Below are positions 13,641 through 48,787 of a stretch of 64,000 bases of DNA, piece by piece; positions within the stretch are counted from its first letter, which is position 1; every line of letters begins with the position of its first letter. Under the pieces are notes generated by a model. It made no database searches and had not been told where the DNA came from. It was given only the letters and a program-made list of their open reading frames with translations. The translations under genes were made by a program, and so were the position numbers. Origin of the DNA: Desulforhabdus amnigena (lineage in GTDB: Bacteria > Desulfobacterota > Syntrophobacteria > Syntrophobacterales > Syntrophobacteraceae); contig NZ_BSDR01000001.1 of assembly GCF_027925305.1 (NCBI RefSeq), positions 124,001-188,000 on the forward strand. Reading direction: 5' to 3'.

Positions 13641-13996
13641 GGGGGCGAAACGGGTTCGACGGAGGTAAAGAAGCTCAAGTTGCATGTCGAGGTCCTGGTT
13701 CCTCGTAAAACTGTCGGGATTTAAACACAAACGCAGACGATTATTCGTATGCCGTAGCCGCTTAGGCGGCTACCGTTCCTCTAGTTTTTTCTTGCGGAAT
13801 TAGCAGGAGCGTCGACTCAGCGAGATGGTCCCTGTCATGCCGCCTGCAGTGACAGAGATGAGATTCCAGTAGGCTAGCCTGTGCGAAATCCTGCTCGTGG
13901 GAGTTTTCAAAGGCGAAACTCAAAACGCGAGATAAACATGTAGAAACTTCAGTGGATTACTTTCGGACGCGGGTTCAACTCCCGCCGCCTCCACCA
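13641..13996 (+). ncRNA. ssrA: Transfer-messenger RNA (tmRNA)
   Basis: Rescues stalled ribosomes by trans-translation. The 5' end GGGGGCGAAACGG pairs with the 3' end CCGCCTCCACCA. The D-analogue GGTTCGACGG and T-arm GGTTCAACTCCCG are present, and CCA is encoded at 13994-13996. The tag reading frame ends at the TAG at 13763-13765 and decodes as NTNADDYSYAVAA; the exact resume codon is uncertain by one or two codons. The tag's -AVAA end is the expected protease signal. The prophage begins immediately downstream, so the 3' end or its flank is the presumed integration site. Confidence 0.96.
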
Positions 13997-14008
13997 TTAA
14001 CAAAAGAC

Positions 14009-14056
14009 AAACCCGTCTCTCTGGAGTCATTCTCCGGGGTGACGGGTTTTCTTTTT
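14009..14056 (+). terminator. Rho-independent terminator after ssrA
   Basis: Stem AAACCCGTC (14009-14017) / GACGGGTTTT (14041-14050), then CTTTTTT. It ends ssrA transcription; it cannot be decided from the sequence whether it is host DNA or arrived with the phage. Confidence 0.8.
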
Positions 14057-14360
14057 TCCCTTGTTTCTAAAGGGTTTGCGCCCGTTTCACATCTTTTCAA
14101 ACAGCTTCTCCGCACTGCCAATTCTCTCCATCCTCCAGCCATTCTTTCTCTGTTTGACCCCTGATTCTCTGTTTTCTTCGGACCAAGTCCGAAGCTCGTC
14201 CGGAAAGCTACATCCTTGATTGATATAGGTTTCCGGCTGGTTGCCGTTTTTGGCGGTTGCCTTAGGTCCTCGGGAGGTGCCGTAACCGGACGTATTTTTC
14301 GAAATCGCCTTCCTCGGTGATGAAAAGAAGTGTGGTCAATTCCGGTTTCCTGCCTCTGCC

Positions 14361-14389
14361 AAAAGAAAAGCCGACGCTGATGGTCGGCT
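14361..14389 (-). terminator. Terminator of the integration operon
   Basis: On the minus strand AGCCGAC (14389-14383) pairs with GTCGGCT (14375-14369) and is followed by the T-rich run TTTCTTTT. It sits 26 bases past the stop of the HTH gene, closing the minus-strand operon. 14057-14360 otherwise contains no gene I can support. Confidence 0.75.
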
Positions 14390-14414
14390 CTGAGGGTGGT
14401 CTCCGGTACGGTCG

Positions 14415-14837
14415 TCAGTCGGTGGCGAAACCGAACTGGCGGCGCTGCGCGGTCCATTCCTCGGGGAAGGTTTGGGTCAGTTTAGCCAGCGAAAGTCCGT
14501 TGGGCTCCTCGCCGTTGATCAGGGCTTCGACGATGTCCGGGGCAAGGGTCGTTAGCTTGAGAATGCGGGTCACATACGAGCCATCCACGTCGAGGGTACG
14601 GGCAAGCTCGCTGATGGACTTGATCTGGCCGGATTCGAGGATGTCGGCCCAGGAAAAGGCTCTTGCCAGCGCCTGGAGGATGGCGGACTGCACCGGCTCC
14701 TGCGCCCCGGGGATTTCTCCATCCAGCGCCTGGGGAGCAATAACCGTCTTGCGGCCGCGCATGCGCCGGATGAGCATCGGGATGTGGATCTGCAGGTTGC
14801 CGTTGTCAGCCACGGTAATGGTCGGTTTGATTTTCAT
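14415..14837 (-). CDS. Recombinase-associated HTH protein
   Basis: A 140-aa protein. Residues about 70-110 (KSISELARTLDVDGSYVTRILKL then LAPDIVEALINGEEP) form a helix-turn-helix like those of ParB/KorB-type proteins; the rest is small and charged. It overlaps the recombinase stop by four bases, so it is co-translated with it. The position suggests an accessory role in recombination, such as a directionality or regulatory factor. That is inference, and no homologue of known function is recognised. Confidence 0.7.
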   Translation of the reverse strand: MKIKPTITVADNGNLQIHIPMLIRRMRGRKTVIAPQALDGEIPGAQEPVQSAILQALARAFSWADILESGQIKSISELARTLDVDGSYVTRILKLTTLAPDIVEALINGEEPNGLSLAKLTQTFPEEWTAQRRQFGFATD

Positions 14838-16420
14838 CGGCTTGCCCTCCGCTCAGTGACTTCGCATGCCAGACCGGCCAGCTCGGCGATGAGTGTCGTC
14901 AGCCCGTTGGTGCGCAGTTCCATGTCGATTCCGGTCTCGCGAATCTCGACTCTGTCTACAAGGAGGCGGATGAGCCGGTTCCGCTCTATCGGAAAAAGGT
15001 CCTCCCAGAAACCCTCGACATTCTGGAAGGCCTCCGAGACATCCAGCTCAGTGATGCTGTTCCCCTGGTAGGCTTTGCATCGCTCGCTCACATGCGTCAG
15101 TTGTTTCGAGAGCTCGACCGCCTGGCGGTTGACGGTCGTGAGCATCTCAGCCTTGCCCGGCTGATCGCTGCCGGGTTTCATCAGTTCGAGTGCCTGCTCC
15201 CTCGCCTGCGACAGCTCCATCTCGAGTTGGGCTTTCTGCTTGAACAGCCGCTCCCGCTCCGCCTGCTCGATGTCCCGGGCCGCGAAGAAGGTTTTGGCCA
15301 CCAGCGTCGGCGTGCGAAACACCGCGCTCAACTGCTCAATCACGGCCTGCTCGATGTCCCCGGCGGGAATCCGTTTGAGCGGGCACCGGCTCACGGTCCG
15401 CTTGCTGTCCTTCTGGCAGATGTAATAGGTGTAGTGGCGGCCGTTCTTGCGGGCGTAGGTCGGTCCCATCGAGCAGCCGCAGTGGCCGCAGCGGATGACA
15501 CCCTTCAGCGGGGCGACCATTTTGGTTCTGGCCATGGATACCTTGACCGGTTTGTTGTCCTCCAGGATGGCCTGAACCTTGTCCCAGGTCGCCCGGTCGA
15601 TGATCCCTTCGTGCTCGCCGGGGTAGCTGCGGTCCTTGTGGGCGATCTCGCCGATATAGATCCGGTTGTTGAGCAGCCGGTAGATGTGGGCGGTGTTCCA
15701 TTCGGAGCCCTCGCGCACCTTGCCTTTCTTGGTGGTCCAGGCCTTGGTGCGGTACCCCTGTTCGTTCAATTCCTGGCCCAGCTTCTTGGCCGAGCCGATC
15801 TGGATGAAGCGGCGGAAGATGTACTGCACCGTCCTGGCTTCATCCGGGTTGACCAGCAGCTTCTTGTTATCCCGGTCGACGTCGTATCCGAGGATGGGCA
15901 CGCCGCCGCAGTATTTTCCCCGGCGCTTGGCTGCCGCCACCTTGTCCCGGATACGTTCGGCGATGACCTCCCGCTCGTACTGGGCGAAGGTAATCAGGAT
16001 GCCGAGAAACATCCGGCCGGTGGGATCGGTGGTGCTGAAGTGCTGGGTGACCGAGACGAAGCTGACGCCCTTTTCGTTGAAGAGGTCGATCATCTTCATG
16101 AAGTCCAGCAGCGAGCGGGACAGGCGGTCGACCTTGTAGACGACGATCACATCGATCTTCCCGGCGTCGATATCCGCCAGCAGGCGGCGTAGCCCCGGAC
16201 GCTCCATGTTCCCGCCCGAGAAACCACCATCGTCATAGCGATCCGGCAGAGCCGTCCAGCCCCGCATCCTCTGGGCTTCGATATAGTGTTCCGCCGATTC
16301 CCGTTGCGCATCCAACGAGTTGAACTCCTGTTCGAGTCCTTCCTCATGACTCTTGCGTGTGTAAATGGCGCAGCGCAGGGTCTTGTTCTTGCCCGGCGCG
16401 ACATTGCTGTTATCAAGCAT
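14834..16420 (-). CDS. Large serine recombinase (phage integrase)
   Basis: Catalyses integration and, with a directionality factor, excision. The 528-aa protein has the N-terminal resolvase domain with nucleophile Ser24 in IYTRKS, followed by YKVDRLSRS and FAQYEREVIAERIRDK. Next come the recombinase domain (RIYIGEIAHKDRSYPGEHEGII), a zinc ribbon beginning CGHCGCSMG with later Cys residues near CQKDSKRTVSRC, and a C-terminal coiled coil (about 385-440). This is the large serine integrase arrangement. It overlaps the upstream DUF2924 gene by eight bases. Adjacent ssrA fits a role as integrase, although such enzymes rarely use tmRNA sites. Confidence 0.93.
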   Translation of the reverse strand: MLDNSNVAPGKNKTLRCAIYTRKSHEEGLEQEFNSLDAQRESAEHYIEAQRMRGWTALPDRYDDGGFSGGNMERPGLRRLLADIDAGKIDVIVVYKVDRLSRSLLDFMKMIDLFNEKGVSFVSVTQHFSTTDPTGRMFLGILITFAQYEREVIAERIRDKVAAAKRRGKYCGGVPILGYDVDRDNKKLLVNPDEARTVQYIFRRFIQIGSAKKLGQELNEQGYRTKAWTTKKGKVREGSEWNTAHIYRLLNNRIYIGEIAHKDRSYPGEHEGIIDRATWDKVQAILEDNKPVKVSMARTKMVAPLKGVIRCGHCGCSMGPTYARKNGRHYTYYICQKDSKRTVSRCPLKRIPAGDIEQAVIEQLSAVFRTPTLVAKTFFAARDIEQAERERLFKQKAQLEMELSQAREQALELMKPGSDQPGKAEMLTTVNRQAVELSKQLTHVSERCKAYQGNSITELDVSEAFQNVEGFWEDLFPIERNRLIRLLVDRVEIRETGIDMELRTNGLTTLIAELAGLACEVTERRASR

Positions 16421-16937
16421 CCGAACCTCCCTCGGCTTTTCTGCCGTAAACCTTCTTCAGCCCGAAAAAGACTTTGCCGTTCCAGCGCGTCCCGGTGATC
16501 TCCCTGGCCACCGCGCTGAGCGACCGGAATGTGCGACCTTCGAACTCGTAGCCATCGGCAAGGACGATCACCTCATAGCGCCGGTCGTTCCAGATCCGCA
16601 CTAGTCTGGTCCCGGGCAGGATCGCCTCGTTCGATTTCCGCTCCTCTGGGATGCGTCGATTGACAGTGGCGACCGGGTCCTCCTTAGCGGCCTGCTGAAG
16701 ATGGACCTTGGCCTGCTCGGACAGCCCGCCGTAGAAAAGCTCCTGGATGCGATAAGCCAGCCGCTTGATGAGGAATTGCTTTTTGTACTGGGGCGGCTCT
16801 TCTCCGTAGAGGTCGAGCCATTTTTCCCGGAGCTGCTCCAGGGACATGGATTGCAGCAGGGCCATCTGCCGAAGGACCGAGTTTCGGGTTCGGTCCTGAT
16901 TCTTGCCGCCGGTGGCGGCGTTCTGTAACTCATTCAT
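16413..16937 (-). CDS. DUF2924 family phage protein
   Basis: A 174-aa basic protein. The first half is helical (MALLQSMSLEQLREKWLDLYG ... KKQFLIKRLAYRIQEL). The second half, PGTRLVRIWNDRRYEV ... YEFEGRTFRSLSAVAREITG, is the DUF2924 signature, resembling a small beta DNA-binding fold. The family regularly sits next to serine recombinases in prophages; its function is unproven. The start at 16937 is chosen for the AAGGAG seven bases upstream, rather than an upstream in-frame ATG without a ribosome site. Confidence 0.85.
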   Translation of the reverse strand: MNELQNAATGGKNQDRTRNSVLRQMALLQSMSLEQLREKWLDLYGEEPPQYKKQFLIKRLAYRIQELFYGGLSEQAKVHLQQAAKEDPVATVNRRIPEERKSNEAILPGTRLVRIWNDRRYEVIVLADGYEFEGRTFRSLSAVAREITGTRWNGKVFFGLKKVYGRKAEGGSDA

Positions 16938-16971
16938 TTTCAACTCCTTATTTTGGTTTCCGGACGAGTTG

Positions 16972-17214
16972 TCATGAATGAATGCTCTGTTCCGGCAATG
17001 AATCAAGTCCTTCTCCGAGCACAGGGGAAGAATCTTCGAAAGCATCTAACTCATTGCCCACACATGCGTTTTTTGCCTTTCGGCGCAGGATCGCCGTGGC
17101 CAGAATGGAAGCGGCTGACTGGAGCCTCGCCTCACCCGACAAGCGGCCGGGTTTGCCGTTTTCGCCAAGGTCATCCATCCCCGGCCCATCATTCATTTCC
17201 TGGACATCCAACAT
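16972..17214 (-). CDS. Small phage protein heading the integration operon
   Basis: An 80-aa acidic protein (starts MLDVQEMNDGPGMDD, central RLQSAASILATAILRRKA helix). I do not recognise a family. GGAGG lies six to seven bases before the ATG. It ends 34 bases before DUF2924 and reads in the same direction, and a bipartite promoter-like element (17366-17398, minus strand) lies 152 bases upstream. These three facts support it as a real first gene of the operon. Confidence 0.6.
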   Translation of the reverse strand: MLDVQEMNDGPGMDDLGENGKPGRLSGEARLQSAASILATAILRRKAKNACVGNELDAFEDSSPVLGEGLDSLPEQSIHS

Positions 17215-17777: not shown

Positions 17778-18566
17778 ATGGGGCACGTCAGACTTGGAAG
17801 CCTTCCGAGGTCGAGGGCATGGAAAGAGGTGGTCGGCCTGATCACGGCCGGTGCCGACGTGTCCCAAATCGCAAACGCAACAATCCGGGCAGCCGATAAA
17901 GCATTCACCTTCGTGCTCAACGATGAGGGGTTCACCGAGGCGGTCTGGTTGATGACGCAACTCGCCATTGCCGCAAAAAAGGAGAACCTCGGCGAGCATC
18001 TCCAATCCCTCGGCGTCAACCTGCCGCAGGATACATCCCTTCCCGATCTTGCAGCCGCAGTCTCCGAGGCCCTGGATAACAAATTGGAGTCCAACGGTGG
18101 CCGATCCGACCTCGGTGAAATGTCTCAGCGTGCATTGGTCGGAGCCCTGGTAGAGCACATCTCACCAAAACTGCCGTCTCTCTTCGCCCCCGGGCCAGAT
18201 GATGTTCGGGCCGCACTGGCAGCGCTCGGGAAAAAGCGGGAGTTCGGAGAGCTGTCGCGGACTTTCTTCGCCAAGCTGACCAACGAGAGCATGAACTACT
18301 TCCTCTCAAAAACGCTGGCTACCCATCTGGGCGAGGGCCAGCGCTTTGCCACCATGAATGAAATGGGACAATTCGAGAAGGCTCTGAACACGCACTGTAA
18401 AGAGGCGTCCCTGATCGTCGAGCAGTTTTCAGCAGATTGGTTTTCGAAGCACAGGTACGAAGAAGGTGGTGACATCTCCAGGGAGTCTTCCAATGGCTTC
18501 GCCTCTTACGCGCTGAAAAAGATGAAGGACGAGCTAAAAGAAGGAGCGCGAGCCGATGCAAGATAA
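17778..18566 (+). CDS. Partner protein of the QueC-like gene, unknown function
   Basis: A 262-aa, mostly helical protein with no motif I recognise. It begins MGHVRLGS, so Met removal would expose Gly2. This is of interest because the QatB partner of the QueC-like QatC also starts Met-Gly in the members I recall. AAGGAG lies eight bases before the start. The gene overlaps the QueC-like gene by 11 bases, a sign that the two proteins act together. A substrate or effector for the QueC-like enzyme is a hypothesis only. Confidence 0.7.
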   Translation: MGHVRLGSLPRSRAWKEVVGLITAGADVSQIANATIRAADKAFTFVLNDEGFTEAVWLMTQLAIAAKKENLGEHLQSLGVNLPQDTSLPDLAAAVSEALDNKLESNGGRSDLGEMSQRALVGALVEHISPKLPSLFAPGPDDVRAALAALGKKREFGELSRTFFAKLTNESMNYFLSKTLATHLGEGQRFATMNEMGQFEKALNTHCKEASLIVEQFSADWFSKHRYEEGGDISRESSNGFASYALKKMKDELKEGARADAR

Positions 18567-20658
18567 ACGATATATCATCTGTGGGAACGCACCGACCGAT
18601 GGGATTGAAGAAAATCCTGACCGTGATCTGCGCCTGCGCCTTTGGGGCAAGGATGGGCCGGACAAGATCACCCTACGCATTGAAGACATCCACAAAAAGA
18701 TGAGCAAGGACGTGCCTGATTCTTTCCAGGACCTGCTCGAAATCGCCACCTACGTTTACAGTGCCGATCAGGCCATCCCACGAGGGGCCGACGACGTCGA
18801 TTCTTTTGGCCATGGCTGGCGCAGGGATCTGCACTTCATCATCCCGGTGCGGAAGCCAGATTTTTGGAACGGAGACGATATCCACCAGGCGCTGCGCTCC
18901 ACGCTTGGTTTCTTGTCTGACGACAACTATCACTTCGAGTTCGTCAAACTGAAAGAGGCTCAGGCATTCCAGGGATATCTGAAATTTGATGATGACGGAC
19001 GGCTGTTCGGCTATCCGGAACAGGTAGTGATGTTTTCAGGTGGACTGGACTCGCTGGCGGGAGCCATCGATGAAGTTCTGAATGAAAAACACAAGGTCGT
19101 CCTTGTTACCCACAAGTCGACACCGAAGCTCAACACGCGCCACCGGCGACTGGAAAAGATGATTGCCGACAAGGCTGGGGAAAACGCCCCGCTACACATC
19201 GGCGTCCGGGTCAACAAGAACAAGGGCCTGAACTACGAGTACACCCAGCGCAGCCGATCCTTCCTTTATGTGTCTATCGGGGCGACCATCGCAAAAATGC
19301 TCAATCTGAAAAGCGTCCGTTTTTACGAAAACGGGGTCATCAGTTTGAATCTGCCGGTCTGCGCTCAGGTAGTCGGAGGCCGGGCAACACGCACCACCCA
19401 CCCCAGGGTGATCCGAGGCTTTCAGGAAATCATCAGCCTGGTGGCTGGCGAACCGTTCACGATTGAGAATCCCTACATCTGGAAAACCAAGGCCGGTGTT
19501 ATCGAGGTGATCACCAAGGCCGGATGCCAGGACATGATCGCGGCATCGACCACCTGCACCCATACCTGGGAGATGACCAATCACCATACGCATTGCGGAA
19601 CGTGTTCGCAGTGCATCGACAGGCGTTTTGCCATGATTGCGGCAAAAGCGGATCAGCATGACCCCGTGGAAGCCTATAAGGCCGATATCTTCACCCAAAG
19701 TCGAAGCAAGGACGAGGACAAGATCATGGCTGCCGCGTACCTGGAGCGAGCCAACCAGGTCCGTGATCAGGATGACATCACCCAGTTTATCGCTCGATTC
19801 AGCGAGGTAAGTCGGGTCTTCCGCTACTTGAATGGGAACCCCGGAAGCGTGGCCCAGAAGGTCTATGACCTTTACAAACGCCACGCCAAGGAAGTCTGCG
19901 AAGCGATGGACACCATGGTCGCCCGCAACATCACGGCCATCCGTCAGCGCACCTTGCCGGGAGACTGCTTGCTTCGGACGGTCTATGAATCGGGATCGGT
20001 GATCTCTGTCCCAGCTATTCCGGTCGAGCAGAAGCAGCCGGACAACTACTTCAGGAAGCGCGGGGGAGTCTGGGCCGCACGCTTTAACGGCAATGCCGAG
20101 GTGCTCGTGACGGGTGTCGACAAAGGAGCCGAGTACATCAACTTCCTTCTGGCGAGGCCCAACAAGGAAACCTCGGTCTACGAGATCGTCTGCGGGTTCG
20201 CCATCAATACCTGCAACACGTTTCTGAACTCTGATGAAACCGAAGACGGTTTTCAGTTCACCCAGGGGGTTCCGTTGGGCGATACCGGCTTCGTCGCCGA
20301 CCGCAAGGCTATCGAGCAGTACCGGGAGGCGGCTCACGATCTTCTTCGAGAAATTGAAGACGCACGAGCAGAAAACAACGATGCCGAGATTCAGCGGCTT
20401 GAAGAAGAAATGGCAAAGGTGACCACAGCGATCAACGAGGCTGTTGGCTTGGGTGGCAAACTCCGGAAATCCAACGACAAGCGAAAGAACGTCCGTGACG
20501 CCTTCCGGAACGCCGTAAACCGGGCCATCAAGTATCTGGAGAAGTATGACAAGCCGCTGGCCGCCCACCTGAAGGAATCCATCAAGTGCGGCAACGAGCC
20601 TGTCTACCGGACCGAAGAGGAGATCGTTTGGGAGGTCCGCCCGATAGTCAACGAGTGA
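18556..20658 (+). CDS. QueC-like (7-cyano-7-deazaguanine synthase-like) protein with long extensions
   Basis: A 700-aa protein. After about 155 unfamiliar residues comes a PP-loop ATP-pyrophosphatase core with SGGLDS at 161-166. It has QueC-type zinc cysteines at Cys334, Cys347, Cys350 and Cys353 (HCGTCSQC). A further ~300 residues follow, ending in a coiled coil (about 590-640). True QueC is about 220-240 aa and makes preQ0, and no other queuosine gene is present here. QueC-like proteins are known parts of the Qat (QatC) and type IV CBASS (Cap9) defence systems. With its overlapping partner, this is a candidate defence or protein-modification module; other Qat/CBASS parts are absent. Confidence 0.8.
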   Translation: MQDKRYIICGNAPTDGIEENPDRDLRLRLWGKDGPDKITLRIEDIHKKMSKDVPDSFQDLLEIATYVYSADQAIPRGADDVDSFGHGWRRDLHFIIPVRKPDFWNGDDIHQALRSTLGFLSDDNYHFEFVKLKEAQAFQGYLKFDDDGRLFGYPEQVVMFSGGLDSLAGAIDEVLNEKHKVVLVTHKSTPKLNTRHRRLEKMIADKAGENAPLHIGVRVNKNKGLNYEYTQRSRSFLYVSIGATIAKMLNLKSVRFYENGVISLNLPVCAQVVGGRATRTTHPRVIRGFQEIISLVAGEPFTIENPYIWKTKAGVIEVITKAGCQDMIAASTTCTHTWEMTNHHTHCGTCSQCIDRRFAMIAAKADQHDPVEAYKADIFTQSRSKDEDKIMAAAYLERANQVRDQDDITQFIARFSEVSRVFRYLNGNPGSVAQKVYDLYKRHAKEVCEAMDTMVARNITAIRQRTLPGDCLLRTVYESGSVISVPAIPVEQKQPDNYFRKRGGVWAARFNGNAEVLVTGVDKGAEYINFLLARPNKETSVYEIVCGFAINTCNTFLNSDETEDGFQFTQGVPLGDTGFVADRKAIEQYREAAHDLLREIEDARAENNDAEIQRLEEEMAKVTTAINEAVGLGGKLRKSNDKRKNVRDAFRNAVNRAIKYLEKYDKPLAAHLKESIKCGNEPVYRTEEEIVWEVRPIVNE

Positions 20659-22042: not shown

Positions 22043-22381
22043 ATGACTCACGACACCTACAAGTACCGTTTTGACGAGTCGGTCCCGGCCCAGGAACTGG
22101 AAGACACTTTCATGCTGGCGATGCTGGCCGTCGAAAGCCTGCATGGCCGTTCCCGTGTGCGGATGGAGAGCCGGTTCAATCTGGACAAGGCCCGACGCAC
22201 CTGCGTGATCGACGCCTCCACCGATGTCGGCAGCGACCTCGCCCGCATCTTCACCGGCTTCGCCACCAAGGAATACGGCGAACGCTCGGTCCTGATCGAA
22301 CGATCCCAGCCGTCGGGTTGCGCCTGTGCCTCCAAGCATCGGGCAGCGCCCGCCGCCGCGACAGCGGGGGTGGCGGTATGA
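22043..22381 (+). CDS. Phage protein of unknown function
   Basis: A 112-aa protein starting MTHDTYKYRFDESV, with a likely small alpha/beta fold (VESLHGRSRVRMESRFNLD) and a Cys/Ala-rich tail. AGAGGAG at 22030-22036 supports this start, not a longer frame that runs back into the sigma gene. It overlaps the nuclease gene by ATGA. First gene of the replication/recombination operon; role unknown. Confidence 0.7.
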   Translation: MTHDTYKYRFDESVPAQELEDTFMLAMLAVESLHGRSRVRMESRFNLDKARRTCVIDASTDVGSDLARIFTGFATKEYGERSVLIERSQPSGCACASKHRAAPAAATAGVAV

Positions 22382-23394
22382 GCGAGCTGATGACCACCAC
22401 CTATTCCATGTGGCGGCTGTTCCGCAACTGCCGCATGGCCTGCAAGTGGCGCTATATCGACGAGCTGGTGCCACTCGAGCGCGACCCCAATCTGGCCTTC
22501 GGCTCGGTCATTCACGACTGCCTGGAGTGCTGGCACGGCGAGCGGGATCTGGCCAAGGTCCTCGACCACATCGACCGGACCTATCCGAACAGGGCGCAGG
22601 ACGACCATCAACAGGCCGACTGGCATCTCGCCCGGGCCATGATGAGCGCCTATGCGAAACACTACCCGGCCGAAGAGTTCGAGGTCGTCGCGCTCGAGAA
22701 GACCTTCGAAGGTCCCATCGTCAACCCGGCGACCGGGGCGACCTCGCGCAGTTTCATTCTCGCCGGGAAGGTGGACGGCATCGTCCGTCAGGATGGCCAG
22801 TATTTTCTGCTGGAACACAAAACCGCCGCGCAGATCGACGCCAGCTATCTGGAGCGGCTGTGGACTGATTTCCAGATCATCCTCTACGCCTGGTACCTGG
22901 AGCAGACCCTCGGCATCACGGTCAGCGGCATCATCTATAACGTCCTGGTCAAAGCCCGGCTGCGCCAGGGCAAGGGTGAAACCGAAGCTGAATACGAAGC
23001 CCGCCGAGACGAACTGATCGCCAAGTCGAAAACCGGCAAGAGCAGCGCCAAGCGCAAGCTGCCGGAGGACGACGAAACCTTCCAGCAACGACTCCAGGAG
23101 AAGTACCTCGAGCCGGGCATGTTTCATCGCGAGGTGCTCTACATCTCCCGAGACCAGTTCGAGGAACTGCGGGCGGAGCTGTGGGAACTCTCCAAGGCCA
23201 TGCTCGACGCCCGTCGGCGCGACACCTTCTACCGCAACACCAGCTACTGCTTCCAGTACGGAAGACCCTGCGCCTACTTCCAGCTCTGCCGCTCGGGCGG
23301 CAACCCCAACGTCATCGAAAACCATTTCCAACGGATCGCCCCGCACGAAGAGCTGCGGGACGGAGCCGGTGAAGACGCCGCTCCGGTGTTTTGA
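22378..23394 (+). CDS. Cas4/RecB-like PD-(D/E)XK nuclease
   Basis: A 338-aa exonuclease-like protein. The core AGKVDGIVRQDGQYFLLEHKTA carries the Asp and E-x-K of the PD-(D/E)XK fold. Cysteines near the N terminus (NCRMACKW) and three near the C terminus (CFQYGRPCAYFQLC) are arranged as in Cas4/AddB proteins with a 4Fe-4S cluster. It probably resects phage DNA ends for the recombination partner encoded next. The start overlaps the previous stop by four bases. Confidence 0.88.
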   Translation: MSELMTTTYSMWRLFRNCRMACKWRYIDELVPLERDPNLAFGSVIHDCLECWHGERDLAKVLDHIDRTYPNRAQDDHQQADWHLARAMMSAYAKHYPAEEFEVVALEKTFEGPIVNPATGATSRSFILAGKVDGIVRQDGQYFLLEHKTAAQIDASYLERLWTDFQIILYAWYLEQTLGITVSGIIYNVLVKARLRQGKGETEAEYEARRDELIAKSKTGKSSAKRKLPEDDETFQQRLQEKYLEPGMFHREVLYISRDQFEELRAELWELSKAMLDARRRDTFYRNTSYCFQYGRPCAYFQLCRSGGNPNVIENHFQRIAPHEELRDGAGEDAAPVF

Positions 23395-23420
23395 AATCCC
23401 AACCATAAGGAGACGAAGCC

Positions 23421-24191
23421 ATGCTTCCCAAGACCAAAAGCAAACCCAAACACACGCTCTCGGACCTCACCGCCCTGGTGTACGGCCCGAGCAAGATCGG
23501 CAAGAGCACCTGGTGCTCCAAGGCCAATGACGCACTGTTCCTGGCGACCGAGCCGGGTCTGAACGCCCTGGAGGTGTTCCAGACCCCGATCACCTGCTGG
23601 GACGACCTTCTGCAGGCCTGCGCCGAAATCGCCGAGGGCAAGCACGAGTTCAAGACCATCGTCGTCGACACGGTGGATAACGCCTACAAGATGTGCTCGG
23701 ACTACGTCTGCAAGAAATTCAAGATCGAGCACGAATCCGACCTGGGCTACGGCAAGGGCTACGCGCTGATCAACAACGAGTTCCAGCGCGTCATCAACAA
23801 GCTCGCCTTCCTGCCCTATGGGTTGATCCTGATCTCCCACTCCCAGGAACGGGACATCGAGACCCGGACCGGCAAACACACCCGCATCGTGCCGACGCTG
23901 CCGGAAAAGGCGCGGAAGCTGGTCACCGGCCTGGTGGACCTGATCCTGTTCTGCGATCTGGACATGAAAACCGGCGAGGACGGCAAGCCGGTCTGGCAGC
24001 GCGTGATGCGCACCAAGCCCAGTCCCAACTACGACGCCGGTGACCGCACCGGCCGACTCCCCGAAGTCATCCCCCTCGATTTTTCGAGCTTCATGAAAGC
24101 GTTCAACAACACGGCAGCCGGAGCTGCGGCGAGTGCCGCCCGGCCAAAGCCGGAGCCGACCGCGAGTGCGGCGGCGAAACCCCAACAGTAA
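23421..24191 (+). CDS. Sak4-like RecA-fold ATPase (phage recombinase)
   Basis: A 256-aa protein with Walker A GPSKIGKST near residue 22 and a Walker B-like TIVVDTVDN. A later LILISHSQE strand is typical of the phage AAA_24/Sak4 family. These single-strand-annealing ATPases work with a phage SSB, and the next gene encodes an SSB-like protein. The C-terminal 30 residues are an Ala/Pro-rich tail. AAGGAG precedes the start. Confidence 0.85.
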   Translation: MLPKTKSKPKHTLSDLTALVYGPSKIGKSTWCSKANDALFLATEPGLNALEVFQTPITCWDDLLQACAEIAEGKHEFKTIVVDTVDNAYKMCSDYVCKKFKIEHESDLGYGKGYALINNEFQRVINKLAFLPYGLILISHSQERDIETRTGKHTRIVPTLPEKARKLVTGLVDLILFCDLDMKTGEDGKPVWQRVMRTKPSPNYDAGDRTGRLPEVIPLDFSSFMKAFNNTAAGAAASAARPKPEPTASAAAKPQQ

Positions 24192-24203
24192 GGAGATCCG
24201 ACC

Positions 24204-24677
24204 ATGGAACACTACGAAAACCAATCCAGCAGCAACCTCGACCTGGCGCAGTTCGACGACGCCTTTGAAACCGCCGAAGTCGAGGAACGCGAGTTCGATG
24301 CCGTCCCCGACGGCAAGTACCAGGTCAACGTCGACCGGGTCGAACTGACCCGCGCCCAGACCTCGGGCAACCCCATGCTCAAGTGGACCCTGCGCATTCT
24401 CGCGCCGACCCACAAGGGTCGTCTGCTCTGGCGCAACAACGTCATGGCCAGCAACGAGAACATCAAGTGGCTCAAGCAGGACCTCTACACCTGCGGGCTG
24501 CAGCTCCAGAAGCTCTCCGACCTGCCGGGCCACCTCGAGCAGCTTCTCAACATCAAGCTGGAGGTGACCAAGCGCACTCGCGGTGAAAACGAGAACATCT
24601 ACTTCAACCGTCGCATTGTCATGGCCGACGATGCCGGGGCTCCCGGCGCGGCGATGGACGACATGATCCCGTTCTGA
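24204..24677 (+). CDS. DUF669-type SSB-like protein
   Basis: A 157-aa protein with the DUF669 pattern (VPDGKYQVNVDRVEL ... NPMLKWTLRIL). It ends in an acidic tip, MDDMIPF, very like the DDxIPF tail by which bacterial SSB recruits partner proteins. It likely coats single-stranded DNA and pairs with the Sak4-like ATPase just upstream. The stop overlaps the next start by one base (TGATG). Confidence 0.85.
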   Translation: MEHYENQSSSNLDLAQFDDAFETAEVEEREFDAVPDGKYQVNVDRVELTRAQTSGNPMLKWTLRILAPTHKGRLLWRNNVMASNENIKWLKQDLYTCGLQLQKLSDLPGHLEQLLNIKLEVTKRTRGENENIYFNRRIVMADDAGAPGAAMDDMIPF

Positions 24678-25159
24678 TGATGGACCGGATCACCGTTGTC
24701 GTCGACACCCGCGAACAGGAGCCCTACAGCTTCGATAGTGACAAGGTTTCGGCGGTTCGCAAGGCGCTGCCCGCCGGTGATTACTCACTGGTCGGCCTCG
24801 AAGAACGGGTGGCGGTGGAGCGTAAATCCCTGACGGATTTCGTCTCCACCGTCATCCGGGGGCGCAAGCGGTTCCACCGCGAGCTGGAAAAGCTATCCGC
24901 CTACGAATCCGCCTGTGTGGTTGTCGAATGCAACTTTCGCGATCTGGTCGATGGCCGCTACCGAAGCGATGCCCACCCGCACGCGCTGATCGGAACGGTC
25001 GCCTCCATCGTCGTCGACTTCGGTGTCCCCGTCTACTTCTGCTCGGACCGGCAGGCAGCCTGCCGTTTTGTCGAGGAGTACCTGACACGTTTTCACCGGA
25101 GGATCGCGAGATGCCAAAAAGAAATGAGAGTAACCCGGCGCGACTCCGGGGAAGAATAG
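24677..25159 (+). CDS. ERCC4-domain nuclease
   Basis: A 160-aa protein with the ERCC4/XPF nuclease motifs VDTREQ, LPAGDYSL and VERKSLTDF in order near residues 8-60. It is a stand-alone nuclease domain that would cut branched DNA, fitting its place between SSB-like and helicase genes. It overlaps the helicase gene by 49 bases, so the last 16 codons also contain that gene's ribosome site (GGAGG 25098-25102) and start. Confidence 0.88.
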   Translation: MMDRITVVVDTREQEPYSFDSDKVSAVRKALPAGDYSLVGLEERVAVERKSLTDFVSTVIRGRKRFHRELEKLSAYESACVVVECNFRDLVDGRYRSDAHPHALIGTVASIVVDFGVPVYFCSDRQAACRFVEEYLTRFHRRIARCQKEMRVTRRDSGEE

Positions 25160-27339
25160 AGCGCGTTTACTATGCCGGACCCAAGTTCTCCGCAGGCCGA
25201 CTGCTCACCCCGACCGGTGAGGAAGTCCAGTTCGCGGGCAATTTGTTCGCTCGGGAAAATCAGCCTGTGGTCCTGCTCGGGTCGTGGTCCACCCATCCAA
25301 AATACGGCCGTCAGTTCAAGGTCGACGGGATGGAGCACGACCTCGAACTCGATCCGGAGGGGCTGATCCACTATCTGGCCAACCATCCGGAGATCAAGGG
25401 CATTGGACCGGCCAAGGCCAGATTGATCGTCGAGAGCTTCGGCGACGCCTTTGAAGAAACCCTTCTGAACGACCCCGAGCGCATTGCGCTCAAGGCTCGA
25501 CTGCCCCTGGAAGCGGCCCGGCGGTTGCGTGACGAATGGTTGAAGAACCGTAGCGTTAACACCGTCATGGCCTGGCTGTCGGCATTCGGCCTGACCCATC
25601 ATCAGGTCACCACCCTGGTCGAAAGACTCGGCGGCAACTGCCTCGATATCCTGAAGGAAGACCCGTACATCCTCATTCGGGAGATCCGGGGATTCGGCTT
25701 CAAGAAGGTCGACAAGATCGCCCGCAAGCTGGGAACCCCCAAGGACCATACCCCTCGTATCCGGGCCGGATTGAATTTCTGCGTCCGTGAAGCCCTGGAC
25801 AATGGCCACTGTTGGATCGAATACGAGGATCTGGTGGACCAGGCCAATTTGCTGCTGGTCATGGATGCCCTGGACAGCCGGGTCCGTATCGAGAGCGCCC
25901 TCGACGCGCTCATCGAAGAACAGGCGCTTTCCTGCGATTCCCACGGCGGGCGTTTCGTGGTCGCTCTGCCGGAGATCGTCCGCATGGAGCGGGAGCTGGC
26001 CTCGTTGTTCGGCCAGGCCGAAACACCCAACCCGCATTTCCAGTCCGTCAAGAAACTCGATGCCCTGATTCGGCGCTGCGCATCAACGCTGAACGATAAG
26101 CAGCTCGAAGCGGTGCGCTCGGCCCTCCAGCACAGCATCAGCCTGATTTCGGGTGGAGCCGGTTCGGGCAAGAGCTACACCATTTCGATCATCAACACCA
26201 TCTGCGAGGAGAGCGATCTGGAGGTCGTGCTCGCCGCGCCGACCGGCAAGGCGGCCAAGCGCCTGGAGGAAGTCAGCGGCCGTAGCGGCACCACCATCCA
26301 CCGTCTGCTCGGCTATGACGGCAAGGGATTCTCCCGCAGCAAGGAGAATCCCATCGATGCCGACGTCTTGGTGGTCGACGAGTTTTCGATGGTGGACGTG
26401 CCCCTGGCCTGGCACTTGTTCGAGGCGGTCGACCTGTCGCGGACCACGGTGCTGCTGGTCGGTGACCACAACCAGCTTCCGCCGGTGGGACCCGGAAACA
26501 TCCTGCGCGATCTGATCCAGACACGCGCCATCCCCACGGTCATCCTCGATAAGGTCGTGCGCCAGGCTGGTGTCCTCAAGGAGAACTGCACCGCCGTTCT
26601 CAAGGGCGAGGTGCGCAAGACCAGCGAGGCATCGGTGGCTGGATGCCGGGATTGGTATCTGGTGGATCAGTTCACCGACCCGATGGCGGCACGCTCGTTC
26701 CTGCTGGAGCTGTTTCAGGAGCGGCTCGACGCCCTGGGTTTCGACATCATCAAGGACGTGCAGGTGCTGACGCCGACCCACAAGGGGCCGCTCGGCACCA
26801 AGGAATTGAACGAGGAACTGCAGCGGCTCATCCAGCGCAAGCTCTGGAACGCCGAGGTACCGCCGGTCGCTATGGGCCGCCGCGCCCCGTTTCTCAAGCA
26901 CGACAAGATCATCCAGACCCGGAACAACTACGACCTGAACGTGATGAACGGTGCCATCGGCTATGTGGTCGATGTCCTCGCGAACGGCACCCTGGTCATC
27001 GACTTCGACGGCATGCCCGTGGAGATGGAAAAGGGTTCGCCCGACCTTCAGGACCTGCAGCTCGCCTATGCGCTCACCATCCACAAAACCCAGGGTTCCG
27101 AGTTCCCCTGCGCCGTGGTGGTGGTCCACAAGGCGCATTCCTTCATGCACCACCGCAATCTGCTCTACACCGGGGTGACCCGCGCCCGGCGCACCGCCAT
27201 TGTCCTGGGTGACCATTGGGGCATCCAGAATTGCGCCAAGCGTTGCCAGGTGGATGACCGTCGGACCTTTCTGCCCCTGTTTCTGGACGCCGCCCAGCAC
27301 GCGGAGGCCGATTTCGCCCGTGTCGCGGAGGCCGAATGA
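25111..27339 (+). CDS. RecD2-like superfamily 1 DNA helicase
   Basis: A 742-aa helicase. Its N-terminal OB-like and helix-hairpin-helix region (IKGIGPAKARLIVESFG, IRGFGFKKVDKIARKLG) is typical of RecD2. The motor has Walker A GGAGSGKS near residue 347, DEFSM near 423, GDHNQLPP, and the C-terminal LTIHKTQGSEF. It unwinds 5'-to-3' in the family. The start at 25111 (GGAGG eight bases upstream) is preferred to an earlier in-frame start that would read through the ERCC4 gene. Its stop overlaps the primase start. Confidence 0.92.
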   Translation: MPKRNESNPARLRGRIERVYYAGPKFSAGRLLTPTGEEVQFAGNLFARENQPVVLLGSWSTHPKYGRQFKVDGMEHDLELDPEGLIHYLANHPEIKGIGPAKARLIVESFGDAFEETLLNDPERIALKARLPLEAARRLRDEWLKNRSVNTVMAWLSAFGLTHHQVTTLVERLGGNCLDILKEDPYILIREIRGFGFKKVDKIARKLGTPKDHTPRIRAGLNFCVREALDNGHCWIEYEDLVDQANLLLVMDALDSRVRIESALDALIEEQALSCDSHGGRFVVALPEIVRMERELASLFGQAETPNPHFQSVKKLDALIRRCASTLNDKQLEAVRSALQHSISLISGGAGSGKSYTISIINTICEESDLEVVLAAPTGKAAKRLEEVSGRSGTTIHRLLGYDGKGFSRSKENPIDADVLVVDEFSMVDVPLAWHLFEAVDLSRTTVLLVGDHNQLPPVGPGNILRDLIQTRAIPTVILDKVVRQAGVLKENCTAVLKGEVRKTSEASVAGCRDWYLVDQFTDPMAARSFLLELFQERLDALGFDIIKDVQVLTPTHKGPLGTKELNEELQRLIQRKLWNAEVPPVAMGRRAPFLKHDKIIQTRNNYDLNVMNGAIGYVVDVLANGTLVIDFDGMPVEMEKGSPDLQDLQLAYALTIHKTQGSEFPCAVVVVHKAHSFMHHRNLLYTGVTRARRTAIVLGDHWGIQNCAKRCQVDDRRTFLPLFLDAAQHAEADFARVAEAE

Positions 27340-30300
27340 GTATGGGCGGAACGGATAACGTCAGGGAGTATTACCGGCTCGTCACCGAGATGGACATCGG
27401 TGACGTGGCCCGGGAACTCCTGCCGGGACGGATCACCCAAGAGACCGGCCAGCGCTTGATGTGCGACTGCCCCAACCATCAGAGCCAGTCGCGTCTGTCG
27501 CTGCACGTGATGCTCGACAAGCAGGGCTGGTACTGCTTCGGCTGCGGAATCGGCGGTGATGTGCTGCAGCTCGTTGAGTTCATTCAGACGGGCTCGGTCA
27601 CCGCCGGGCAATCTGGTCCGATGCCGGACAGCCACCGTCAGGCCCGGGACTATCTCGCCAAGAAGGCGGGCTTGCCTCCGCTGTCGCGCTATGGCCTCAG
27701 CCAGGAGCGTCTGGCCCAGACGGAGGCCGACCGCGCCTTCGAACTGCGGGTCAAGGACGCGCTGACCTCGCTGGCCAGGCTTTACCACGCCAGACTCAAA
27801 GAGTCGCCGGAGGTCCTCGACTGGCTGAAATCCAAATACGCCCTGAGCGAGGAGACCATCGACGATCTCCTGATCGGCTACGCGGACAACGCGTCCGGCG
27901 CGGTCGCCCAACTGACCGGGGGTGAGGACGGTTTTTCCAAGCGGGAGCTCGCCGCGACCGGCGCTTTCCGTCCCACCAGCCAGGACGGCCTGACGCCATT
28001 TTTCGAGCGCCGCATCGTCTTTCCCTACTGGAGCCGTGGCCGGGTAGTGTTCATGATCGGCCGCAAGACGCCGTGGACCCCGGACGTGGGCTGGGAGCAA
28101 GGGAAATACAAGAAACTGCCGGTTCATGACGAACACCAGCGGCCCTACGTCGCCGACTTCATCAACAACGCGCTGCTGTTCAACGAGGACTGTCTGCTGG
28201 CCCGGCCCGGCAAGGTGATCATCACCGAGGGGGTGACCGATTGCCTGGCGCTGATGCAACTGGGCCTGCCCACCGTATCGCCGGTCACCGTCCGCATCCG
28301 GGCCGCCGATTGGGAGCGCCTGATCCCCAAGTTGCGCGGCGTCGAAACCGTCTACATCTGTCAGGACAACGAACTCTCCCAAGCCGGTCTCAAGGGGGCA
28401 CTGCAAACCGCCCGCACCCTGGCCGAACACAAGATCGACACACGCCTGGTGACGCTGCCCTTGTCGGAGACACAGATCTCAGCCCGGCAGGAGCTGACCG
28501 AACGCTTCGGCCTGACGGCGAGCGTGGGGCCGAAGGAGCTGGCCAAGCTGCTGGCTGGACGGCCCGCCGAGGAAATCCAGGCGGCCGAGGCGCTTCTCGC
28601 CACCGCAAAGATCGACGTCAACGATTACATTGCCGCCGGGCATACCCGGGAGGATTTCGAACGCCTGCTCGCCGAGGCCAGCACGCCCATCGAGTTCGGC
28701 GTGCGCTCGCTGCCCGAGGGCGCTGAGGAAGAGGAACGCAACCGCCTGCTCGAACCGATCCTGGGGGAGATTTCCGAGCAGTCGCCGCTGGAACAGGCCC
28801 GCCTGCTGAAGCTGGTGCAGGAGCGCATCGGCGGTGGCGTCTCCATGGCCACCCTGAAGGAACAAATCCGCGCCATCCAGAAGGACCGAAAGGTCGAGTT
28901 CCGCAACGAAAAGAAAAAGGCCAAGCGGATGTCCGGCGCGATGCCCGGATCATGCCGCGCCCGGGTTGACGAGGTGCTGATCGACACGGAACTGGAGAAC
29001 GGCGCTCCCGACTACACCCTGGCCGCCGAGGCCGCCTACGACTGGTTCACCTCCAACGGTGCCCAGTTCTTTCACACCCTGCAGGGCGAGCCGTTCATGT
29101 ATTTCGACAACGCCATCTATTGGATGGATTCACCGGACCGGGGCCGCAAGCGCCATTACGCGGCCATGCTTTACAAGCACACGGGCATGGTGCCGACCAC
29201 GGGCGGCGGACGGACATTTTTCGAGGTGTTGCCAAGCCTGGCGATGATCCGTGGCCAGGTGCGCGACCATTTTTCCTGGCTGCACACGGATGTGGCTTCC
29301 TACACCGTCTATTTCAACCTGAACAATCCGGAGCACGAGATCGCCAAGATTACCCCGGACGAAATTCAGATCATGAAGAACGGCGGCAACGAGGACGGCA
29401 TCATCCTGGACGGCTCGCGGAAGATGAAGCCGCTGAAATTCCTGCCCGACGCCGACCTCGAAGAGGCGGACCGGCTCCTGGTCGATCTGCTGGTGGGTAA
29501 CATGACCTGCCCGCAAGGAGATCGCTTTCTCATCCTTTCCTGGCTCTCCTGCTTCCTGCTGATCGACTTTGCCGGGACGCGGCCCATGACCCGCTTCGAG
29601 GGCTCCGCCGGATCGGGCAAGACCACCGCCAGCAAAATCACTTCGACGCTGCTTTACGGCGAGCCCCAGCACAAGAAGGCCACCGACGCCGCGAACTACA
29701 CCGACGGCTCGCAGAACCCGCTCATCGTCCTCGACAACATCGAGGTCAAGCAGATGACCGAGGATCTGACCACCTTCATGCTGACCAGCATCACCGGCAT
29801 CGCCAAGGAGAAACGCAAGAGCGGCACCGACAGCGAGACCATCACCGAGCGGACCAAATGCCTGCTGAACACCACCGGCATTGAGCCGCTGTGCGGGGAG
29901 CTTTCGGAGATACTGTCGAGGTCCTTCGTTATCAACTTCGACCTCGCCAACCAGGCCAGCGACTGCTTCCTGGAATCGGAGGTCATTTCCGCCATCCAGC
30001 AGAACCGGGACCTGATCATCTCGGCCATTATGAAGCGAACCAGTCATGTTCTGGCGATGATCCGGGACGGAGCCCAGAAACAGGTCATGCGTCTGCTGCA
30101 CCGAACCATGCCGACCCATGGCAAGCGCCGTTGCAACGATTATCTGAGCCTGATGTACCTGATGATGCTGGCCGGGTCCGAGGAACACGAGGTGACCACC
30201 GGACTCGAGGATCTAAGCCCGCTGTTCATCGAGCAGATTCATTCCATCAATGACACCAGCCAGGAGATGGCGCGGGAGTCGAACCCCATTGCCACGGCGC

Positions 30301-32087: not shown

Positions 32088-32683
32088 TGCCGCCGAAGAG
32101 ACGCAAATTCCAGAGACCCCTTGGCGAGCGTCGCTACCGCAAACTGTTCGTGATCGCGGTGGAAGGCGTGAAGACCGAGCCGCAGTATTTCGCCATCTTC
32201 AATGACCAGCAATCGGTGATCCGGGTGAACTGCCTCAAAGGCAGTCATGATAGCTCACCTCCCCAGGTGCTGAAGCGGATGGAGGACCATCTCCGGCAGG
32301 AGGAGCTGAGATCCTCCGACGAAGCCTGGCTCGTGGTGGACAAGGATCAGTGGACCGACGAACAGTTGGACCAGCTTCATGCCTGGGCTCAGGCACGCGA
32401 CAATTACGGCTTCGCCCTCAGCAACCCCAAGTTCGAATACTGGCTGCTGCTTCATTTCGAGGACGGCACCGGCATCGCATCGTCACGGGATTGCAGCGAC
32501 CGGCTGAAGCGGCACCTTCCCGGTTACGACAAGGGGATCGACGCACGCAAGATCACCCGCGACCGGATCGATGAAGCCATCCGCCGCGCCAGGCTGCGCG
32601 ACAATCCTCCCTGCGCCGACTGGCCACGCACACTTGGCGGCACCACGGTTTACAAGCTGGTCGAAAACATTCTCCAGGTCTGA
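32087..32683 (+). CDS. RloB-like protein
   Basis: A 198-aa protein matching Rlo[27 protein letters not shown] and [14 protein letters not shown]. The acidic residues in EGxKTE and VVDKDQW resemble a TOPRIM-like nuclease centre. It overlaps the RloA gene by one base. In related pairs the ATPase senses infection and the partner is the toxic effector; this is inferred by analogy. Confidence 0.88.
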
Positions 32684-37418: not shown

Positions 37419-37693
37419 AAGAGATCCTTCAGGAAAACAGCGATGCCGTCCGCCAGGCCGGTGAGGCCCTGGTTGAAATCGGCACCGAACTGGCGGCGGG
37501 ACGGATCGAGAACGCCCTCGGCCGTCTGGAAGCGGCCCAGCAGCAATACCGGGCCTGGGCGGAGTTGGACCAGGCCATCATCGACATTCAGGAGGCTGTC
37601 CATGACCGGAAGAACACCCTGGCCGTGCAGCAGATCCTGACGGAACTGGTGGGCACCATCCTCGGCAGCGCCTTGAGGACGGGAATGCACTGA
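37415..37693 (+). CDS. Small helical phage protein
   Basis: A 92-aa protein, nearly all helix (VRQAGEALVEIGTELAAGRIENALGRLEAAQQQYRAW), with a hydrophobic C-terminal segment. It shares ATGA with the lipoprotein gene and TGATG with the terminase gene, so the three are translationally coupled. No family recognised; a lysis accessory role is possible. Confidence 0.6.
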   Translation: MKEILQENSDAVRQAGEALVEIGTELAAGRIENALGRLEAAQQQYRAWAELDQAIIDIQEAVHDRKNTLAVQQILTELVGTILGSALRTGMH

Positions 37694-39216: not shown

Positions 39217-39224
39217 TCGCATCC

Positions 39225-39257: not shown

Positions 39258-39330
39258 CGGCATCGAGCCGGGTTCGGCCCACACGGGCCGGATGTGCGGC
39301 TGTCATGGCCGAAACTACCGAGAGGATCAC

Positions 39331-46275: not shown

Positions 46276-46290
46276 AATTCGCCGTCACCC

Positions 46291-48775: not shown

Positions 48776-48787
48776 GGAGGAAACACC

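What the first reader, a model, noticed from the sequence alone, without database searches (positions are those of the whole stretch)
13641..14389. Serine-integrase prophage abutting ssrA
The integration operon ends 419 bases after the tmRNA 3' end. Tyrosine integrases usually exploit tmRNA 3' ends, serine ones usually do not. Either the true attachment site is the ssrA flank, or the tyrosine recombinase 20 kb away is involved, or two elements are stacked.
Basis: partly seen in the sequence, partly recalled or inferred. Interest (0 to 1): 0.5.

Follow-up and report, generated by a model that had tools for sequence, protein, structure and literature searches.

The report
Phage parked at tmRNA gene end
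A large dormant virus has inserted itself exactly at the end of an essential RNA gene using a serine-type DNA-cutting enzyme, and close copies sit at the same spot in distantly related bacteria; the trick was already known from one phage of an acid-loving bacterium, but here it serves an unusually widespread virus.

Summary
In detail: the tmRNA gene (13641-13996) is followed, 419 bases on, by the end of a three-gene serine-integrase operon (14415-17045). The ssrA 3' end is the attachment site. Related elements share the junction ...CTCCACCA|TTTAG + hairpin: of 35 distinct left junctions 25 follow ssrA, 3 a partial ssrA tail, 4 the right end of another copy, 3 something else. Their right ends mostly finish in CTCCACCA before native flank, so the shared core is 8-9 bp. 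Five complete relatives measure 81.5-91.0 kb and share about 60 kb at ~96% DNA identity; terminase-portal is 97% identical in a gammaproteobacterium. In this genome no right end was found. The XerC-like tyrosine recombinase (35508-36422) probably does not choose the site: a sister prophage in this genome carries it (62% aa) but has another serine integrase and sits at tRNA-Asn; phage AcaML1, reported at the tmRNA gene with 10-bp repeats, has the serine module and no XerC-like match in the 55 kb searched. AcaML1 and Dehalococcoides islands are prior art: a new member of a known kind, with unusual spread.

The parts
13641..13996 (+). ssrA (tmRNA), target gene, left intact by the insertion
   Evidence: ARAGORN
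13989..13996 (+). att core CTCCACCA (last 8 bases of ssrA), shared with the right end of relatives
13997..14414 (.). left arm of the element (phage side of attL); 88% identical to the left arm of L082, which is 94-100% identical to those of five complete relatives
   Evidence: among 19 other ssrA loci of relatives it follows ssrA in 4, two of them in diverged form
14002..14055 (+). element-borne hairpin followed by a U-run, probably the replacement terminator of ssrA (inferred)
   Evidence: 13997-14060 folds at -32.9 kcal/mol, z -6.77
14415..14837 (-). small ParB/HTH-like subunit of the integration module (phrog_14161); homologue of the AcaML1 'recombinase small subunit' (42% aa over 82 residues)
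   Evidence: (parB_part below cut-off)
14834..16420 (-). large serine recombinase (integrase), 528 aa, open frame intact
16413..17045 (-). DUF2924 protein, third gene of the module; homologue of AcaML1 Gp4 (39% aa)
17778..20658 (+). variable locus 1 (unknown protein + QatC-like protein); no matching DNA in 4 of 5 complete relatives
22318..30647 (+). replication/recombination genes: PD-(D/E)XK exonuclease, Sak4-like, SSB, helicase, primase
30741..32683 (+). variable locus 2 (AAA ATPase + RloB), probable defence cargo; no matching DNA in 3 of 5 complete relatives
35508..36422 (-). XerC-like tyrosine recombinase, in the backbone of all five complete relatives (95-97% aa); judged not to be the site determinant
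37693..39216 (+). terminase large subunit
39292..40839 (+). portal protein
40839..45416 (+). Mu-F-like head protein, 1525 aa
46376..48775 (+). DNA methyltransferase
49169..50032 (+). major head protein
52563..54092 (+). tail sheath (contractile tail)
60189..61472 (+). tail protein; the prophage continues past the window end (baseplate J at L003:3194-4603; backbone to about 16.1 kb past the window end, cargo to about 37.7 kb past it)

Best explanation
A contractile-tail temperate phage of about 88 kb integrated at the 3' end of ssrA by its own serine integrase module (large recombinase, small HTH subunit, DUF2924 protein). The integrase recombines a phage site, in relatives ...TTGCGGTAGGTCG.CGTTCC-CTCCACCA-TTTAGAAAAGACAAACCCGTC..., with the ssrA 3' terminus ...CCGC-CTCCACCA. 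Insertion leaves ssrA whole; the phage's left arm supplies a strong hairpin in place of the native terminator, which is displaced to the far side. Because the target is a conserved stretch of a near-universal gene (recalled), the same phage can lysogenise very different hosts. In this genome no right arm was found, so this copy is probably locked in. Shown: junctions, core, sizes, conservation, sister prophage. Inferred: catalysis by the serine enzyme, terminator function, spread by infection, loss of excision.
For: 35 distinct left junctions, 25 after ssrA (23 called by ARAGORN, L073 and L086 by eye). The right-arm probe matches 12 of 16 genomes; in 11 of them it marks a right end, in G003 only a 51-base fragment that is none. 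13 distinct right ends finish in CTCCACCA, 3 in CTCCGATT. Hairpins that look like native terminators lie behind right ends L100, L105, L110. Five complete relatives: 87,288, 89,043, 91,008, 83,199 and 81,488 bp; mean identity to the window element 95.6-96.1% over 59.9-63.8 kb. A partial ssrA tail of about 18 bases suffices in L069. Sister prophage: 16-bp repeat CGGGGAGCCAGAAATC at tRNA-Asn and 90,150 bases away. AcaML1 has the same three-gene module, and CCACCATTTA at both record ends; PMC3826726 (passages) reports it as inducible, in the tmRNA gene, with 10-bp repeats. No XerC-like match in AcaML1 1-55,000.
Against: No recombination assay. No right end here, so the att sites of this copy are inferred from relatives. 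The half-site right of the core is not conserved between hosts, which I recall as unusual for serine integrases. Three of 35 left ends (L089, L093, L237) follow neither ssrA nor another copy; L089 and L093 are from MAGs and may be assembly errors. The XerC-like gene is in all five complete relatives, so its absence could not be used as a test within this phage. In two isolates with the integrase, Thiohalocapsa marina and Desulfoprunum benzoelyticum, the terminase-portal stretch gave no match. Part of the cargo segment beyond the window is withheld and could not be read.
Confidence: 0.88

Rival explanations
1. The XerC-like tyrosine recombinase at 35508-36422 integrates the phage at ssrA; the serine recombinase does something else (e.g. 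inversion).
For: Tyrosine integrases classically use tRNA/tmRNA 3' ends; the gene is present in all five complete relatives at 95-97% aa; a tmRNA site used by phages of the tyrosine-integrase clusters is described in PMC8092301 (passages).
Against: It lies 21.5 kb from the end while the serine module is adjacent; the shared core is 8-9 bp against 25-76 bp for the tRNA sites in PMC8092301; the sister prophage has it at 62% aa but sits at tRNA-Asn; no match in AcaML1 1-55,000, reported at the tmRNA gene; no match in the 5.7-17 kb held around three tRNA-Ser insertions with a fused relative of the module (short stretches, so weak evidence; L243, at tRNA-Asn, has a weak 29% match).
Confidence: 0.06
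2. Two elements are stacked: an older ssrA island of another kind supplies the left boundary and the phage integrated next to it.
For: Stacking is seen elsewhere: left end directly after another right end in L082, L090, L113, L239, a diverged left end after the right end in G006 and G040, and a variable post-CCA region in the family.
Against: In the window the phage left arm starts at the last base of ssrA; the segment is one element in five relatives.
Confidence: 0.04
3. Chance neighbourhood: the operon merely happens to lie near ssrA and the phage boundary is elsewhere.
For: No repeat of the ssrA end in this genome.
Against: Same junction in several genera, classes and two phyla; tmRNA is as a rule a single-copy gene (recalled).
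Confidence: 0.01

Closest known systems
Acidithiobacillus phage AcaML1 (JX507079; Acidithiobacillus caldus)
   Same: Same operon order: small subunit (42% aa), large serine recombinase (48.9% over 68% of the query), DUF2924-like Gp4 (39%); record starts and ends in CCACCATTTA, the start followed by a hairpin; reported in the tmRNA gene with 10-bp repeats and inducible (PMC3826726, passages); tail sheath; McrBC genes near the right end.
   Different: 59 kb record instead of about 88 kb; no XerC-like match in its bases 1-55,000; other right-arm sequence; spread over phyla not known to me.
Dehalococcoides ssrA genomic islands (DsiB/DsiA)
   Same: CcrB-like large serine recombinase at ssrA, tandem stacking, a ParB-domain protein in the module (PMC3146451, passages and abstract).
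   Different: Crossover placed in the T-loop, 20-bp repeats; islands (the vcr type about 12 kb) described as mobilizable elements, not phages; two serine recombinases.
SCC elements (CcrA/CcrB) of staphylococci
   Same: Serine recombinase, stacking, insertion at the end of a conserved gene (rlmH; PMC10061031 passage); the integrase matches NCBIfam CcrB at 163 bits.
   Different: Other target; far below the CcrB cut-off of 900 bits; not a phage.
Tyrosine-integrase elements at tRNA/tmRNA 3' ends
   Same: Target gene kept whole; element begins at its 3' end.
   Different: Serine enzyme; core 8-9 bp instead of 25-76 bp (PMC8092301, passages).
Wolbachia phage WO serine recombinase
   Same: Recombinase 40-41% aa over 67%.
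   Different: The sr1WO type is described in a magnesium chelatase gene or between genes (PMC9203015, passages).

Membership tests
Large serine recombinases (serine integrases) | Resolvase N-terminal domain followed by Recombinase domain and zinc ribbon in one long protein | tested here: met
   PF00239, PF07508, PF13408 all above cut-off; phrog_95 integrase 431 bits
Large serine recombinases (serine integrases) | attP and attB differ, sharing only a short core | tested here: met
   8-9 bp shared between left and right junctions, in relatives
Large serine recombinases (serine integrases) | Recombines attP x attB without another integrase | not testable with these tools
   needs an assay
AcaML1-type ssrA integration module | Operon small subunit - large recombinase - DUF2924 directly inside the left end | tested here: met
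AcaML1-type ssrA integration module | Insertion at the ssrA CCA end with CCACCA(TTTA) at the junction | tested here: met
   window CCACCATTAAC; most relatives CCACCATTTA; AcaML1 record CCACCATTTA
AcaML1-type ssrA integration module | Short direct repeat at both ends | tested here: not met
   not met in this genome (no right end found); met in relatives
AcaML1-type ssrA integration module | Inducible phage | not testable with these tools
   needs induction; PMC3826726 reports it for AcaML1
Temperate contractile-tail phage | Terminase, portal, major head, tail sheath, baseplate genes in one cluster | tested here: met
Dehalococcoides ssrA-GI | Crossover in the ssrA T-loop with 20-bp repeat | tested here: not met
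   core lies at the CCA end, 8-9 bp
SCC/Ccr | CcrA/B/C family membership | tested here: not met
   CcrB 163 bits against cut-off 900; CcrA and CcrC also below
Tyrosine-integrase tmRNA element | Tyrosine integrase next to att and a long identity block | tested here: not met
   XerC-like gene 21.5 kb away; core 8-9 bp

The most novel reading that the evidence does not exclude
A family of phage serine integrases with a small HTH subunit (separate or fused) is specialised for the 3' termini of stable RNA genes and has switched targets between tmRNA, tRNA-Asn and tRNA-Ser, even between two sister prophages of one genome; the tmRNA version rides on a phage lineage that has recently crossed between Thermodesulfobacteriota and Gammaproteobacteria with 96-97% DNA identity, because its target is almost universal.
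Probability: 0.42. Interest if true: 0.72.

Novelty: new member of a known kind. Interest (0 to 1): 0.52.

Why it matters
It shows that ssrA-targeting by serine integrases is not an oddity of one phage or one island family but the integration mode of a widespread phage lineage found in cultured bacteria of two phyla. The sister pair in one genome, with related backbones and different serine integrases at tmRNA and tRNA-Asn, is a natural experiment on how serine integrases choose targets, and the enzymes are candidates for inserting DNA at a site that most bacteria are thought to have.

Tried and rejected
Search for a second copy of 13900-14460 in the genome: only short matches, best E 0.049 over 24 bases. 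CTCCACCA itself: no plus-strand copy from 78.0 kb to the end of the stretch held, about 124 kb in window coordinates, apart from the withheld part. The right end was first sought near the end of the conserved backbone, about 80 kb, where G000 and G006 diverge; rejected because variable cargo continues and relatives end 81-91 kb from the left end. A CCTCCACC at about 101,952 was considered as the missing right end and rejected: by eye it lies in the C-terminal motif of a minus-strand DHH-type gene (motif recalled), and the right arm does not align better than shuffles (15.0; shuffle mean 12.7, maximum 19.0). The same-genus genome G001 was tried as an empty site; it carries a diverged left end and no matching integrase.

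The claim that the whole phrog_14161 family uses stable RNA ends was tested and does not hold as a rule. Of 30 loci from a Pseudomonadota sample 2 have a tmRNA within 1.5 kb, one of them the E. shaposhnikovii copy of this element, 28 have no stable RNA. Of 20 places read more widely (one without an integrase match, one without a small-subunit match), 4 have a tmRNA whose 3' end faces the module (L303 and L310 within 0.8 kb, L298 and L308 at about 4.5 kb; about 0.05 expected by a rough estimate), 2 have a tRNA 5-6 kb away and 14 have none. No phage or plasmid record matches 37693-50032 by megablast; the head protein matches 3 phage records, best 31%. The end repeat of an 89-kb virus contig was checked as evidence for a circle: 121 of 125 bases agree before the first mismatch, so a circle cannot be told from tandem copies.

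Full report
What is there. The tmRNA gene lies at 13641-13996 on the plus strand. A minus-strand operon of three genes ends 419 bases behind it: a 140-aa protein of phrog_14161 (14415-14837), a 528-aa serine recombinase with Resolvase, Recombinase and zinc-ribbon domains (14834-16420) and a DUF2924 protein (16413-17045). GC content of 1-kb steps is 0.45-0.58 before the tmRNA gene's end and 0.55-0.67 behind it, staying high beyond the window end. The window also holds exonuclease, Sak4-like, SSB, helicase, primase, terminase, portal, head, DNA methyltransferase and tail-sheath genes, and a baseplate J gene follows just outside: a prophage with a contractile tail.

The left junction. Two other genera of the family carry the same segment directly behind ssrA. 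Their ssrA genes are 80-81% identical to the window's, while the blocks of the segment are 89-96% identical (the first block includes ssrA). The bases behind ssrA differ between genomes: among 19 ssrA loci of relatives, 4 show the same start, two of them (G001, G034) in diverged form. Relatives of the integrase were found in 27 loci of species-representative genomes (92-100% aa in the best segment, one at 87%) and in 5 virus contigs (94-97%). Collecting left ends from all loci then held gave 52 raw and 35 distinct junctions (places seen twice merged; a virus contig with only 14 flank bases, L096, was merged with L069 by the script and is not counted; the junction was anchored on a CCACCA near the expected place). 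23 have an intact tmRNA by ARAGORN, two more look like ssrA by eye (L073; L086 with 86 flank bases), three follow only a partial ssrA tail (L069 about 18 bases, L079, L095), four follow the right end of a copy (L082, L090, L113, L239), three follow something else (L089, L093, L237). Three of the 35 came from searches that favour such ends (L113 and L239 by the right arm, L237 by a pattern with the core); without them it is 25, 3, 2 and 2 of 32. 34 of 35 read CTCCACCA; L093 reads CGCCACCA.

The right junction. The sequence in front of the left end in L082 recurs elsewhere; as a probe it matched 12 of the 16 genomes searched (18 handles given, 2 not held) and not the window's genome. In G003 the match is a 51-base fragment and no right end; in the other 11 it marks right ends. 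Thirteen distinct right ends finish in CTCCACCA; three finish in CTCCGATT followed by one shared sequence that I cannot explain. Behind CTCCACCA lie hairpins that look like native ssrA terminators (L100, L105, L110), other host DNA, or the left end of a further element (L082, L090, L107, L113; diverged in L108). So the two ends share a core of 8-9 bp, and insertion moves the native flank to the far side. The left arm itself folds into a strong hairpin followed by a U-run (13997-14060, -32.9 kcal/mol, z -6.77); that it terminates ssrA is inferred.

Size and spread. Complete elements measure 87,288 bp (G006), 89,043 (G040, Desulfosarcina alkanivorans), 91,008 (G045, Desulforhopalus sp. IMCC35007, which also has an internal right-arm variant about 1.9 kb before its end), 83,199 (G041, Desulfocarbo indianensis) and 81,488 (G043, Desulfofustis glycolicus). 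They share 59.9-63.8 kb with the window element at a mean of 95.6-96.1% DNA identity; the differences sit mainly at about 17.7-20.8 kb, 30.6-33.2 kb and in the cargo from 80.1 kb on. The terminase-portal stretch (3,147 bases) was sought in 23 genomes and matched 9: five over 3,142-3,147 bases at 96-97% (G040, G041, G043, G044, G045), two at 96% over the part left by a contig edge (G046, G366), two only at 77-89% (G003, G362). Fourteen did not match, among them incomplete MAGs but also the isolates Thiohalocapsa marina (G050) and Desulfoprunum benzoelyticum (G049), so not every copy of the integration module still has this backbone. G044 is Ectothiorhodospira shaposhnikovii DSM 243, a gammaproteobacterium, with 97% over 3,145 bases; its left end is joined to an ssrA with the tag ANDDNYALAA and its right end to its own hairpin. 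Of the named hosts, five were looked up: classes Desulfobulbia, Desulfarculia and Desulfobacteria of Thermodesulfobacteriota, and Gammaproteobacteria twice.

This genome. Cargo homology ends at an antiporter-like gene (by eye) at window coordinate about 101,712; in G043 the matching gene ends 248 bases before the right end. No right arm follows here and none was found in the genome. The simplest reading is a deleted right end and a locked prophage of about 88 kb. Part of the cargo segment is withheld, so this cannot be made certain.

Which recombinase. A XerC-like tyrosine recombinase lies at 35508-36422 and is 95-97% identical in all five complete relatives. But a sister prophage in the same genome, syntenic over most of the backbone, carries it at 62% aa, has a serine integrase 43% identical, and sits at the 3' end of tRNA-Asn, with a 16-bp repeat there and 90,150 bases away (search limited to the 115-kb region held). 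I re-read 20 divergent loci with wider flanks. Eight hold integrases of the sister type, 42-45% identical; 5 of these 8 have tRNA-Asn with its 3' end facing them, with the sister 6 of 9. Six loci hold seven fused or partly preserved recombinases with the small subunit at the C-terminus; three of the seven lie right behind a tRNA-Ser gene, and two of those share the same element start right after CCA; four do not. Two loci hold only remnants of the small subunit, behind a tRNA-Leu and a tRNA-Ala gene. L259 has a 74% identical integrase that runs off the contig on the relevant side. L251-L253 gave no match.

Prior art. The nearest phage record by integrase is AcaML1 of Acidithiobacillus caldus (48.9% over 68% of the query; all 1,614 matching records are below 60%). 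Its module has the same three genes in the same order, its record begins and ends in CCACCATTTA, and a hairpin follows the start. PMC3826726 (passages) calls it an inducible temperate phage in the tmRNA gene, with 10-bp repeats (its text gives 72 kb, its table 59,363 bp). No XerC-like match was found in bases 1-55,000 of the record (the rest was not searched). Dehalococcoides islands use a CcrB-like serine recombinase at ssrA with 20-bp repeats and a crossover placed in the T-loop (PMC3146451, passages and abstract); clostridial islands in ssrA with large serine recombinases are mentioned in PMC10061031 (passages). I found no description of this phage lineage or of the tRNA-Asn sister in the searches, which cover open-licence papers only and of which I saw listings, and passages of some papers.

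Limits of the wider rule. The small-subunit family was found in 27 of 297 genomes of the window's phylum and 95 of 398 of a Pseudomonadota sample. In the first sample 7 of the 8 strongest loci are at tmRNA (one is the window itself, one the Desulfocarbo copy already counted). In the second, 28 of 30 loci have no stable RNA within 1.5 kb, and of 20 read more widely 4 have a facing tmRNA and 14 no stable RNA. The rule holds for some branches and is open for the rest. Recounting the fused loci (3 of 7) made me lower the odds of the novel case from 0.45 to 0.42.

Verdict. The finding is real and its first alternative is right: the attachment site is the ssrA 3' end, used in all likelihood by the serine integrase. 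The kind is known from AcaML1; the lineage, its near-identity across phyla and the tRNA-Asn sister are what I did not find described.

Noticed in passing
L139/L140/L141 (G000:C1:3136028-3226177): Sister prophage of about 90 kb at the 3' end of tRNA-Asn, with the integration module inverted relative to the body and a 16-bp repeat at both ends.
   Followed up: partly
window 18556-20658: 700-aa QatC-like protein (206 bits, below the NCBIfam cut-off of 280) in variable locus 1; ORFs at 17778, 20832, 21206 and 21806 gave no PADLOC match.
   Followed up: partly
window 30741-32683: AAA ATPase plus RloB pair in variable locus 2, likely defence cargo; no matching DNA in 3 of 5 complete relatives.
   Followed up: no
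window 35508-36422: XerC-like tyrosine recombinase kept in the backbone of all five complete relatives and in the sister; its role is unexplained.
   Followed up: partly
L090, L102, L112: Right-arm variant ending CTCCGATT followed by the same conserved sequence in three genomes, i.e. not a host junction; meaning unknown.
   Followed up: no
L034:4048 and L029: Diverged copies of the left end directly behind ssrA in G001 (no matching integrase in that genome) and G034: remnants or other members of the element family.
   Followed up: partly
L041 (G019), G022:C245: Extra 26-27-base copies of the ssrA 3' end 1-4 kb downstream of ssrA, pointing to other islands at the same hotspot.
   Followed up: no
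L003:16267 to L004 (beyond the window): Cargo of this copy: PepSY and, by eye from the translations, an ABC transporter, DedA- and UppP-like genes, genes that look like an arn lipid A modification operon, and an antiporter; G006 has other cargo, by eye a DNA methylase and a helicase.
   Followed up: partly
L238 (IMGVR_UViG_3300034524_000040): Right end of the element followed by a short spacer and, by eye, a tyrosine integrase gene: the phage seems to have inserted next to a tyrosine-type island.
   Followed up: no
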